Shown here piece after piece: positions 21,601-30,600 of a stretch of 64,000 nucleotides of DNA. Source of the stretch: Rhynochetos jubatus (lineage: Eukaryota; Chordata; Aves; Eurypygiformes; Rhynochetidae); contig CM050653.1 in NCBI GenBank assembly GCA_027574665.1, positions 13,042,664 to 13,106,663 on the forward strand. Reading direction: 5' to 3'. Under the pieces are notes generated by a model. That model saw only the letters and a program-made list of their open reading frames with translations. It did not search any database and was not told the DNA's origin. How positions within the stretch are numbered: position 1 is the first letter of the stretch; each line of letters starts with the position of its first letter. Both the position numbers and the translations under genes were made by a program.

Positions 21601-24600
21601 TCTGTCCTCACTGCGGTGGGAATTGATTCTATGTTTTATTTCATAAAGTTACATAAACCCCAAATTTTCCAACTATTCACGTCTGTAGGTACATGAATCT
21701 TAAGTATTGCTAATCACATGCTGCAGAGTTACAAAATTAGTTTAGATGAATCCTACCTTTAAATTTTAGTCAGTTTTTAGCATATGGTAGGTTTTCCACA
21801 GAATAACTGCAGAATTGCTGGTTCTGTGCATTGCGTTGCTGCATCTGTGTTCCTTTGCTACAAGAAACTTTGCAGTGGTTCATGTTGAGGAAAGAAGCTT
21901 TTTTCCCCCCCCCCGAGGTGAGTTAGATTCTTGTGTTCCCCTGTTTTAAGTGTTAAGCATCAGTTGGTACAGTGAGGAGAAACTGGATACAAGACTTAAC
22001 ATTCCTGTGCCTAGCTGGAGCCACAGGCCCCAAAACTGACTTCAGAGATGTAGTTTCAGGTTTTCGTGTTTCATATTCAGTAGGAGAGAATATGAAAATG
22101 GGATCGTGATAATGAAACAAGTAGGCCGAGTTCATCGTGATCTGGAGGAAGAAAGAAGAAATAGAGTAGAAAGGGATTGGTAAGAACTCAGGGGAAATTA
22201 AATTAACCTCCTGATGCTGTTTTCTTTCTTTGCCAAGCTCATTTTTGTGCTGCCTGTGCCCTACAACGTGTTCCAACATCTTTACATGAAGTTGTACCTT
22301 GTGTATGCTGCATGTCAAGAGATTAACAGGATCTTGTTTTTCACTTTTATTCAAAGATAAAGGAAATCAGCTGGGGAGATGTTGGAGGCTGGACTGGTCA
22401 AGGAGGATCAATTCTTGGTACAAAACGGTAATGTCAGTATTTTGCCAATTGCTATGATGAATTCTAGGATTTTATATAACCAGTGTATAATCCCATTATC
22501 TTTTCCTTCCACAGAATATTTTAAGTACTCGGTGGTGGGTTTTGGTTTCTTTCAATTGTTACATTCCAACTTGGGTATTTTATACTACTGTACCAGCTCC
22601 GAAGAGAGAATGAAAATGGGAGTCACGTCCTTAACTTAAAAATTTCCTGGGATCCTTAGGCTGAAAAGGGTTGCAAACCTGTAGTTTCTTCACAGTTTAC
22701 TTGATTCCTTACTGGTTGTCAGGAAGAATTACTTGTATGGATAAATACATACAATGAAAAAAATTGCATTGCCTGCTCAGTTTACTGTTTCAGCTTAGTC
22801 ATTAGTTCCTGTTGTTGCAGAGTCTGTAAATTGTTTCCGTTTTTCTCTTGGTTTAATAATTTTTAGTACTCTTCCTGCAAAATACTTGGAGAAGATTGCT
22901 GACCAGATGCGCACTAACAACACTAACGCCCTTATGGTTATTGGTGGATTTGAGGTACACAGAAATGTCTGATTATGTCTAAGTAGAGTAGAATTCCTAG
23001 CAAAAGGAATAGACCATTTTATTTTTCACCCAATCTTCATGTAAAGTGCATTTGGTTATAACTGTATTAGATATGCAGCTCACAGTGTTTAGGATCAGAG
23101 TATTGCCAATCCCTGATTCTGTGGAAAGCTGACGTTCAAGGCAGCGGGTGGTAATTGCAAAACAGGATGTTCTAAATGGATAAATAAGGTGAGATAGCAT
23201 GATAGTAATTTAGTATTTTAAAAAACCAAAATTAATGACTTCAGTAGTGCAATTTCCAGTCTATACTGTGCCAGTACTTAGAACATACTTCCAGAAGTTC
23301 CTGACCTTTAGTAATAATTGCAATGTGGTCCCTTCCTTAAGCCACTCTTTCTCACACAGGGTGTTTGAAAATCTGTAATTGATCTAGAGAAGTATTTTCT
23401 TCTTTCTGTTATTTCATATTCATTTCACTTTACCAAAATAATAGATTTTTTTGAGCTCTAGATTCAGGAAAGTATTTTGCCAACTCTTCCCAGAGAAGAA
23501 CGTGCTTATTTCTTCTTGATAAGGAATGAATCATCCTTTTATTTTTTTTTTTCAACCTGTTAGCCAGGAGCCTAGCTCAGGACTATTAAGATTTTAAATG
23601 AGCAGTAACAGTACCTGAAGATTGGAGAACCAGCTTGCAGTATGTTTGTGTTGTTCAAAGCACTTAGTATGTTTAAATTATATATTCTCTTGAAAATTAA
23701 TGTTTTGCTTACTGTTTGTTTTCAAATGTATACCTGGTTTTAATGCTTTCTTTTGTGTGTGTTAGATTTTAGTGGTTCCGTAGTGCTTTGACTTGCTGAA
23801 GTGTGCTGTGGTAGAAATGGCTCCCCCTGTGGCCCTTTTATCCTTCCAACCTTACCCTTATTTTATTCACCCTAATTTTTCCCCCAATGCCTGTGCCCAA
23901 CAGGCGTACCTCGGACTTCTGGAATTGTCAGCTGCCCGAGAGAAATATGACGAATTCTGTGTTCCAATGGTTATGGTTCCTGCAACTGTATCCAACAATG
24001 TACCGGGTTCAGATTTCAGCATTGGTGCAGATACTGCTCTGAACACTATAACTGATGTAAGTCTGTTCTGGTGTGTGCGCTTACTAACAAAGCAGTTCTG
24101 GTTCAAACTGACTAAATTGGCTAGAGCTGGATATTTTTATAGACCAGAACTTTGGAAATAAAATCTGGAAAATGATACAGTTACTTCATATAGCCACATC
24201 CATGATACCCATTTTAAAAAAGACAAGGTTTAGGATCCCAAATCCTTCCATTAGGAACTAGAATGACCTTTAAATTCGTAAACTACAAAGTAAGATGGCA
24301 TATATCTGTGTTATATGAAGAAAGGAATCTAAGCTTGTATTAATGTATTCTACTAATAACAGAGTTAACAAAGAGTTGAGATCTATTATGAAGTGTTTTT
24401 TGAAAAATCAAATTCAGTAATAAGATGTAAATTAAAAAGGGATTGATTAATACTAAACTCAGCTGGACAGAAAGCGTTGCCAAACACCATAAAAAATAAT
24501 TTGTCAGGCATGCACAGTTACAGTTCATCTGAATCCCTTAAAAAGCATTAATCCATCATAGCTCTGCTGAGAAGGACAATTCTGTTTCTGTATGTTCTGA

Positions 24601-27600: not shown

Positions 27601-30600
27601 GAAATCACTTGCATCAAATAAAATGGCAATATTTAATGCAAGTAAAACATATCTTACCTGCATTTTATACCATGAATGCAGACTAACCGATTGTGTTAGT
27701 TATTGCTCTAAATCTCCCTTCAGTTTGGTTTCCCAAAAGTCTCAGTATAAAGCTTTTCAGAGAAACTCACGTTTTGCAGATCTCCAGGAAGCCATGCGGT
27801 TTTACCAGACCACTGGGACTCAGTGGACATCCTTATTTTCCAGTGGAAATAAAAGCTCCAAACGGCCTGACTGAGCGGAGTTGGGCCAGGCAGCGAAGTC
27901 TCGCCCACTCAAAGAACAATCCATGTGTTGCTCTTCTGGCTGTCCTGCCTCTCCGAGCTGCAGGTCTGGATGCGCAGTCTTGTGTTTCAGACTTAAACTG
28001 GAAATGCATCCTCGCGCTGAGCTTAATTGAAGGTTGCAATTAGGAAAAACACGAGTTGAGATTGACTTTAGAAAGTCAGTTTGCACTTATGCAGCTACTG
28101 CCTGTCCTCTCACAGGACAGGATCTGCTCTGTCTAGGACAAAAACCTAGAGAGAAGAATTCCCACAGGTGAATTTTTTCCCCTTCCCCTGAGTTACTGCT
28201 TAAATGCGACACTGCGTAGATATTTGTGGAGCTAGCTTGATAGCTGTCTGGTGCTGATCTGCAGTAGTTTGCTTCTCTGAACTGATTTGAGAAACAGAAA
28301 AGATGAGACTTCTGTGAACATCAGTCCTTTGGGAGAGAGAGATTAAGAGAAACATAACGTGCTATGTAATCGGGCTTTCCTTGTGGAGAGCCGTTACATA
28401 GGCAGCTTGAAAAATTGCCACACATCATGAGAGACGCTGATGAGTTAGTTACGTTATTCCAATTCTTTCTAATCTAAAAATGTTTACTTAAAACAACTGC
28501 AAAATCTTAACCTTTAAATATTATTTTGACATCTATTAGGAAGACCTAATCATTTTCACATTTTGTAGTGTTTGAAATCTTCCCAAGGATGTACAGGATC
28601 CTTGAACTACGCTTGCAAACCTTATTAACTCATCCATGTGCACACATTCCTGCATTTTTCTGGGCCTGTGTCCAGCCTGTGTGCATAGAGGCAGATGTGT
28701 GATGGTGACAGAATCTTGGAAGGCGTGGGCAAAGCTTTTTTTTTTCCTTTTTCTTGGTGGAAATAGATGCGCGTCTTGACTTTATCAGATAACACAGTTT
28801 TTAAACAAGCAGCTTTCTTGTAAGCATTTCCTTCAAGTTGTAGGTGTTTTACTAGTTAACTTTCTGAACTCCTTAACATGCATCAAACTTTGTTCTCGAA
28901 GTGGTTTCTGGCGGAATGATTTCCAGTCTTCCTTTGTGCTGTCTTTCTGCCCAGCTGCTTCAGACCTGTGCTGTGCACACTTGGCATTCACTCTCTATTA
29001 ACTTGCACTCGTCTTCTGCATTTCTTCAAAGAGCATTGTGCCAATGCAGCCCCAGTGCACTGTTGTGGTATGTACAGGATACCCCCGCCCCCCCCCCCCC
29101 CCCCCCCCCAAATCACCTCACTGGTTGTGTCTGCTTGGGCCAATGGACAGCCAAATTTACCATCACATGCAAGGAGTCATTAGCACAGCAGTCCCAAGAC
29201 CAGGAATGTATCACTCATACTTGTACCACTGCTTCAGGCCTATGAAAGTTGTCTGCAGCTACACGAGGCACGTTCCCGCTTTGAGGAGTTTTGCGTACCT
29301 GTCTGTGTGTTGCCTGCTACTATTAGCAACAATGTGCCAGGCACAGACTTTAGCATTGGTGCTGACACTGCCTTGAATGCTATTGTGGAGGTAAGACTGT
29401 GTATCTTTTAACAGTTAAGGTGATAAAATGCGTAAGATGAGGATACCTAAAGACCTTGAAATGTCTCATTTTCTAAAATAATTCATTTACTGTGGGGGTG
29501 TTTTTTTATGCTTTATAGTTAAGATGTTTTCCAAGACTGGTTAAAGATTAACCTAATACAAACTAATTATGTTGGATGTTTAACTCTTGGGGGTTCGGTT
29601 TTGTATTCCAGGACTGCTGCATTAGTTCTAAGGACATTTGCTTTTACTGAGAATACAGTCTTTTGCTTGCTTTGATTCTGGTTTTGTATCTTGTACATCT
29701 CCTCACCATTACTAAGGTGAAAGAAAGCGCATGTTTTATAAATAAATGCCACGGTTACTTCCTGGGCTGATGACTGAGCTCAGTGCAGTAGAGCATTCTA
29801 AGTACTTGGTTAACACGAACCACGTGAATAATTCCATTAGGCTTAGCATATATTAAGCGCATATAAATGCGTGCAGAGTATAAGCAGTTAAGTCTGTTAC
29901 TGATGCTAACTAGGGTGAGGCCAGAACTTGCTATGAATGAGTGTTCCATTTCAGTCAGAACAATTGGTTTTCTAGCTTTAGTCTGCCATAGTTTTTTCCC
30001 GTGGGTACAACTTTAAGTTCTTTACTATCCTATTGTCTGTTGTAGCTACAGCAGGGGGAACTGAGTTGAGGTCTGAAGCAAACCTCTGACCAGCTCTGGG
30101 TGTTATCAAACCACTCGTTATCAGTCCATATAACTAACTATTCTGACTTTCTTGGCTAATCACTTTATAGGGATCAGGGGTTTGAGAAATGCAGGTTTGT
30201 TTTGCTGCTCTGGTACAGGACTATTTATGTAGAGTGACAAAGCTCCAGTAGATAATTGCAGGAGCTGTGCCAGAATATATTATGGCTTGGTCCTCGGGAG
30301 GTACGATACAGGTGAAGAAGACCTAAGATGTAGGGTGGGTAAACTATAGCAGTGTGTTCATAGGCAGGACATAGGTACTTCTACCACTGCATTAGCTGCT
30401 TTCCCCCTTACCTACATCTATAAATGTCTGGCTAAGTCTGACTGCTATCACTTATATCAGTCGCTTAATTATGACTGATACCACTTCCAACAGTGATGTG
30501 TCTGTAAAAGTGAAAACAGTGCCAAAAAAAATAGGGTATATACTGCTGCTTCTTATTTCACTGTTGTTTATTATTAAATTTAATTTCAATTTGTACAGCT

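What the first reader, a model, noticed from the sequence alone, without database searches (positions are those of the whole stretch)
23904..29390. Two interchangeable versions of PFKP exon 16: a candidate mutually exclusive exon pair in the allosteric domain
Seen: exons at 23904-24056 and 29238-29390 are both exactly 153 bp, both open, both phase 0 at each end and both flanked by AG and GT. They encode homologous 51-residue segments, about 32 identical. Known: this part of PFKP contains TVSNN (538-542) of the fructose-2,6-bisphosphate site. Inference: splicing one or the other between exons 15 and 17 yields two full-length isoforms that differ in the helix and strand next to the allosteric site, so possibly in response to activators. 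Exclusion cannot rely on frameshift, because double inclusion stays in frame. I do not recall such a pair described for bird PFKP, but could not check.
Basis: partly seen in the sequence, partly recalled or inferred. Interest (0 to 1): 0.85.

Follow-up and report, generated by a model that had tools for sequence, protein, structure and literature searches.

The report
Known alternative exon pair in PFKP
A probable bird gene for the sugar-burning enzyme phosphofructokinase carries two interchangeable versions of one exon at its control site; the pair is real, but it is an old vertebrate feature already described for the human gene, not a bird novelty.

Summary
The alternative-exon reading is supported but not new. 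Lam et al. 2021 (PMC7954323) treat PFKP as a mutually exclusive exon gene and name V539I in the fructose-bisphosphate site; that is segment position 29 here, V in 16a and I in 16b. Martinez-Gomez et al. 2022 (PMC9741552) name PFKP in the human set. Database proteins carry the pair in gull (16b 50 of 51 identical), other reptiles, amphibians, ray-finned fish, chimaera, lamprey and mammals.

Two additions. (1) Exclusion may be leaky: 147 of 160 listed proteins hold 16a and 16b in tandem, though the ranking favours such proteins. (2) In this genome PFKM and PFKL each have one exon 16, a-like in PFKM, b-like in PFKL, and a 51-residue tree groups 16a with PFKM (96/92). The duplication may predate the isozymes. 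That is suggestive only: the rival topology is not rejected (p-AU 0.11). No transcript data were available.

The parts
22867..22954 (+). PFKP exon 15 (ends phase 0, upstream partner of 16a or 16b)
23904..24056 (+). PFKP exon 16a, 51 residues, TVSNN form (V539)
   Evidence: 2 differences from human PFKP
24057..29237 (+). intron of 5,181 bases between 16a and 16b
29088..29109 (+). run of 22 C, 128 bases before 16b; possible regulator site or simple repeat, not tested
29238..29390 (+). PFKP exon 16b, 51 residues, TISNN form (I539), PFKL-like
32852..32857 (+). TGCATG (RBFOX-type motif, name recalled), 61 bases before exon 17; another at 32460; conservation not tested
32919..33083 (+). PFKP exon 17 (starts phase 0, downstream partner)
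610..38429 (+). PFKP gene, exons 2-22; exon 1 lies off the left edge

Best explanation
This is the bird copy of the ancient vertebrate PFKP exon-16 pair. Splicing joins exon 15 to 16a or to 16b and then to exon 17, giving two full-length enzymes that differ in one segment of the C-terminal half, including residue 539 (V or I) of the fructose-bisphosphate site. 16b gives PFKP a PFKL-like version of that segment, so the isoforms probably differ in activator response. Shown: sequence, frame, splice sites, conservation, residue differences. From print: use as a splice event in the human gene and the V539I difference. Inferred: use in this bird, a regulated choice, and the change in allostery. Exclusion cannot come from frame (double inclusion is in frame), from steric hindrance (5,181-base intron) or from mixed intron types (all GT-AG), so it must be regulatory, and it may be leaky.
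For: Exact pair geometry and homology. Published PFKP event with V539I, which matches position 29: V in 16a (fraction 1.00) and I in 16b (0.99) of 147 tandem proteins. Same pair from lamprey and chimaera to mammals and gull. Nine columns invariant in both forms, including T538, S540, N541. Both acceptors are 5th and 6th weakest of 22 in the gene, donors ordinary.
Against: No transcript or peptide from this bird was seen. Many annotated isoforms contain both exons in tandem (147 of 160 listed, a ranking-biased sample), against strict exclusion. No listed protein with 16b alone was seen, because clustering at 90% identity would hide it. The exon 17 acceptor is as weak as those of 16a and 16b. 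No allosteric effect was measured; V to I is a small change.
Confidence: 0.9

Rival explanations
1. 16b is not an alternative to 16a but is usually added to it: a cassette exon giving a longer enzyme with a doubled segment.
For: 147 of 160 listed PFKP proteins (108 of 120, 39 of 40 new ids) are annotated with 16a followed by 16b; the insertion keeps frame.
Against: The ranking rewards two matches and clusters are probably represented by their longest form, so the sample is biased. The doubled segment would break a conserved domain: an AlphaFold2 model of the gull tandem form is under pLDDT 50 over most of 530-721, while a single-copy PFKM control with the same 30 sequences is mostly above 50 there (weak, shallow, other isozyme). 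Published work treats the PFKP pair as exclusive.
Confidence: 0.06
2. 16b is a decaying, unused duplicate in this bird.
For: No transcript data seen; 16b varies more than 16a between species (mean pairwise identity 0.783 against 0.822).
Against: Frame, length and splice borders are intact; gull 50 of 51 and alligator 48 of 51 identical; functional-site residues kept from lamprey on.
Confidence: 0.03
3. Assembly error, or a copied-in piece of PFKL coding sequence in the PFKP intron.
For: 16b is nearer to PFKL than to the other isozymes.
Against: The same exon sits in the same place of the protein in many species; this genome's PFKL exon differs from 16b at 16 of 51 residues.
Confidence: 0.01

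Closest known systems
PFKP mutually exclusive exon event (Lam et al. 2021, PMC7954323; Martinez-Gomez et al. 2022, PMC9741552)
   Same: Same gene, same segment, same V539I difference at the fructose-bisphosphate site
   Different: Those papers work on human, mouse, fish and fly sets; neither passage read is about birds
PKM exons 9/10 (PKM1/PKM2)
   Same: Homologous exon pair in a glycolytic enzyme that changes allosteric activation by FBP; Lam et al. draw the parallel
   Different: Different enzyme and fold; its effect is measured, that of PFKP is predicted
Single exon 16 of PFKM and PFKL
   Same: Same 153-base exon position and frame in this genome
   Different: One copy only: PFKM a-like (35 against 31 of 51), PFKL b-like (35 against 28 of 51)

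Membership tests
PFKP exon-16 pair of vertebrates | Gene is PFKP | tested here: met
   1481 bits to human PFKP, 1269 PFKM, 1236 PFKL
PFKP exon-16 pair of vertebrates | V in one copy and I in the other at residue 539 | tested here: met
   16a TVSNN, 16b TISNN; published V539I
Homologous mutually exclusive exons | Adjacent exons, similar length, same frame, detectable homology | tested here: met
   153 and 153 bp, phase 0, 63% identity, E 5e-26
Homologous mutually exclusive exons | Own functional splice sites | tested here: inconclusive
   Canonical AG/GT at both; use not shown
Homologous mutually exclusive exons | The two exons never occur in one transcript | tested here: inconclusive
   No transcripts of this bird; tandem isoforms annotated in many species
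Homologous mutually exclusive exons | Both isoforms expressed | not testable with these tools
   No RNA-seq or proteomics tool

The most novel reading that the evidence does not exclude
The exon duplication is older than the vertebrate isozymes. The common ancestor of PFKM, PFKL and PFKP had both exon forms; PFKM kept only the a form, PFKL only the b form, and PFKP kept both. Splicing in PFKP would then still switch between a muscle-type and a liver-type allosteric element that the other two genes fixed by losing one exon.
Probability: 0.45. Interest if true: 0.6.

Novelty: already known. Interest (0 to 1): 0.3.

Why it matters
The finding confirms that a known but little-studied splice switch in a rate-setting enzyme of glycolysis is intact in a bird and reaches back to lamprey. 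If the exon pair predates the isozymes, it links two ways of making enzyme variants, splicing and gene duplication, and lets the muscle/liver difference at the activator site be tested inside one gene by swapping one exon.

Tried and rejected
Frame-based exclusion: rejected, double inclusion and double skipping are both in frame. Steric exclusion: rejected, 5,181 bases between the exons. Mixed intron types: no sign, all listed borders are AG and GT.

Regulator motifs in introns 15, 16a and 16b, against single-base shuffles: most within about threefold of expectation. Highest: MBNL-like motifs in intron 16b (13 against 5.0), CELF-like TGTGTG in intron 15 (2 against 0.3), the poly-C run, and two TGCATG in intron 16b (0.7 expected; 22 in the whole window). 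With nine motifs and three introns looked at, none is evidence of function.

A relic of the missing second exon in this genome's PFKM and PFKL: none in L009 and L010 (10 kb each) by tblastn with 16a and 16b, beyond the true exon 16 and the N-half exon; all other matches had E of 0.39 or more.

Deep origin: the tree of 64 rows gave 16a+PFKM 96/92 and 16b+PFKL 69/74. Against it: 16a itself was not one clade (Xenopus and lamprey rows outside), the fluke outgroup row fell beside 16a+PFKM at 92/87, holding 16a+16b together was not rejected (p-AU 0.181), and three further clade tests did not finish. The three-topology test (49 distinct rows, no outgroup; the six mammalian 16b rows were dropped beforehand for long branches) favoured 16a-PFKM | 16b-PFKL with bp-RELL 0.914; p-AU was 0.11 for 16a-16b | PFKM-PFKL and 0.040 for the third. 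Quartet columns on 87, 114, 26 and 28 distinct rows: 3.93 against 2.26 and 0.83; without column 29, 2.94 against 2.26 and 0.84 (PFKM and PFKL rows were told apart there by column 29 itself). One PFKM row (opossum) was dropped when the pattern failed. All PFKM and PFKL rows were tetrapod.

Phages with 16b: 2 partial matches, irrelevant. Rfam: 0 matches. Pfam on four ORFs: 0 families. RNA-seq, peptides, other birds' DNA and supplementary files were out of reach.

Full report
OBSERVATION. The window holds PFKP on the + strand; exons 2-22 lie within 610-38429 and exon 1 is off the left edge. The assembled protein (16a form, 755 residues) scores 1481 bits to human PFKP against 1269 to PFKM and 1236 to PFKL. 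The two exons stand at the stated coordinates, each 153 bp, phase 0, with AG and GT at the borders. They share 32 of 51 residues, E = 5e-26. All four splicing outcomes keep the frame. Exon 16 is the only exon found with a second copy, apart from the known similarity of the two halves of the enzyme. The window lies in a 1.33-Gb genome of 148 contigs. The nearest listed 16b is a gull's, 50 of 51 identical, so a bird is very likely; the species was not determined.

PRIOR KNOWLEDGE. I searched the held library of open papers ten times. Two papers treat the PFKP pair. Lam et al. 2021 (PMC7954323; outline, sections 11 and 20, passages) say that the PFKP mutually exclusive exon event likely alters allosteric regulation and model residue 539, V to I, in the FBP site on a human structure. 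Martinez-Gomez et al. 2022 (PMC9741552; outline, introduction, section 10, passages) cite this for the human gene set. Their introduction says that over 90% of such human events have orthologues in bony fish; that is for the class, not for PFKP by name. Passages of PMC12613645 and PMC12487847 had nothing on this pair. No title or abstract start in the ten listings was about the bird pair; the chicken papers listed were not opened, and supplementary files could not be read.

CONSERVATION. A protein search keyed to 16b and a later one returned PFKP proteins of birds, crocodilians, turtles, lizards, snakes, amphibians, ray-finned fish, chimaera, lamprey and mammals with a 51-residue 16a followed by a 51-residue 16b. 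By a strict pattern 108 of 120 and 39 of 40 new ids match; the other 13 have different flanks or spacing, one being the fluke protein. Among these 147, position 29 (residue 539) is V in 16a (1.00) and I in 16b (0.99); position 36 is S against T (0.98, 0.97); position 23 is always C in 16b and never in 16a. Nine columns are invariant in both, including T538, S540 and N541 (residue numbers rest on the recalled human guide and agree with the published V539I). Mammalian 16b is clearly more diverged: the mammals read in full share 31-34 of 51 with the window where one search gives a count.

TANDEM ISOFORMS. Most listed proteins hold both exons. Two matches raise the score, and clustering at 90% identity probably hides shorter isoforms, so this is not a frequency. 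It does show that annotation pipelines often build double-inclusion transcripts. An AlphaFold2 model of the gull tandem form (30 sequences, mean pLDDT 62.4) is below 50 over most of 530-721. A single-copy cuckoo PFKM control with the same 30 sequences (mean 70.5) is mostly above 50 in that domain. This hints weakly that double inclusion harms the fold; both models are shallow and the control is another isozyme.

MECHANISM. Shown: introns of 949, 5,181 and 3,528 bases, so steric blocking is out; all borders AG/GT; no frame filter. By a score made from the gene's own other exons, the 16a and 16b acceptors rank 5th and 6th weakest of 22, but that of exon 17 is slightly weaker. Inferred: a regulated choice by RNA-binding proteins. 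A run of 22 C at 29088-29109 and TGCATG at 32460 and 32852 are candidates only. Inferred effect: PFKP-16b carries PFKL-type residues in and around the sugar-bisphosphate site.

ISOZYME LINK. In the same genome PFKL (L009) and PFKM (L010) each have one 153-base exon 16 in the same frame. PFKM's resembles 16a (35 against 31 of 51), PFKL's 16b (35 against 28). Of 120 PFKM and PFKL proteins, 119 show one segment by motif, one shows none, and none shows two; the motif would miss a degenerate second copy, as it did in some PFKP rows. The 51-residue tree puts 16a with PFKM at 96/92, while the rest of the gene puts PFKM with PFKL (SH-aLRT 99; quick tree rooted on one long fluke branch) and the lamprey gene on the PFKM+PFKL side (92). 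Together this suggests that the duplication preceded the isozymes. Against it: only 51 columns; the rival topology is not rejected (p-AU 0.11; 0.181); the fluke row groups with 16a+PFKM at 92/87; column 29 carries much of the signal. Of the outgroup rows, all five have T at position 36, so S in 16a and PFKM looks derived, but position 29 varies among them. I hold this reading at 0.45.

VERDICT. Interest in the finding itself is modest; the exon-before-isozyme reading is the part worth following.

Noticed in passing
window 63636-63974, - strand: An open frame that resembles PITRM1 (presequence protease), the usual neighbour of PFKP in vertebrates; the name is recalled and Pfam gave 0 families for it.
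   Followed up: partly
window 17092-17409 and 55405-55740, - strand: Open frames that look like tails of CR1-type retrotransposon proteins, common in birds and reptiles; recalled, Pfam gave 0 families.
   Followed up: partly
P0243 (Paragonimus kellicotti): Three identical copies of the exon-16 segment in one 977-residue predicted protein, probably an annotation or assembly artefact.
   Followed up: no
P0275 (Petromyzon marinus): A lamprey protein named platelet type has both exon forms, but the rest of the gene falls on the PFKM+PFKL side of the tree (92), so the name may be wrong.
   Followed up: partly
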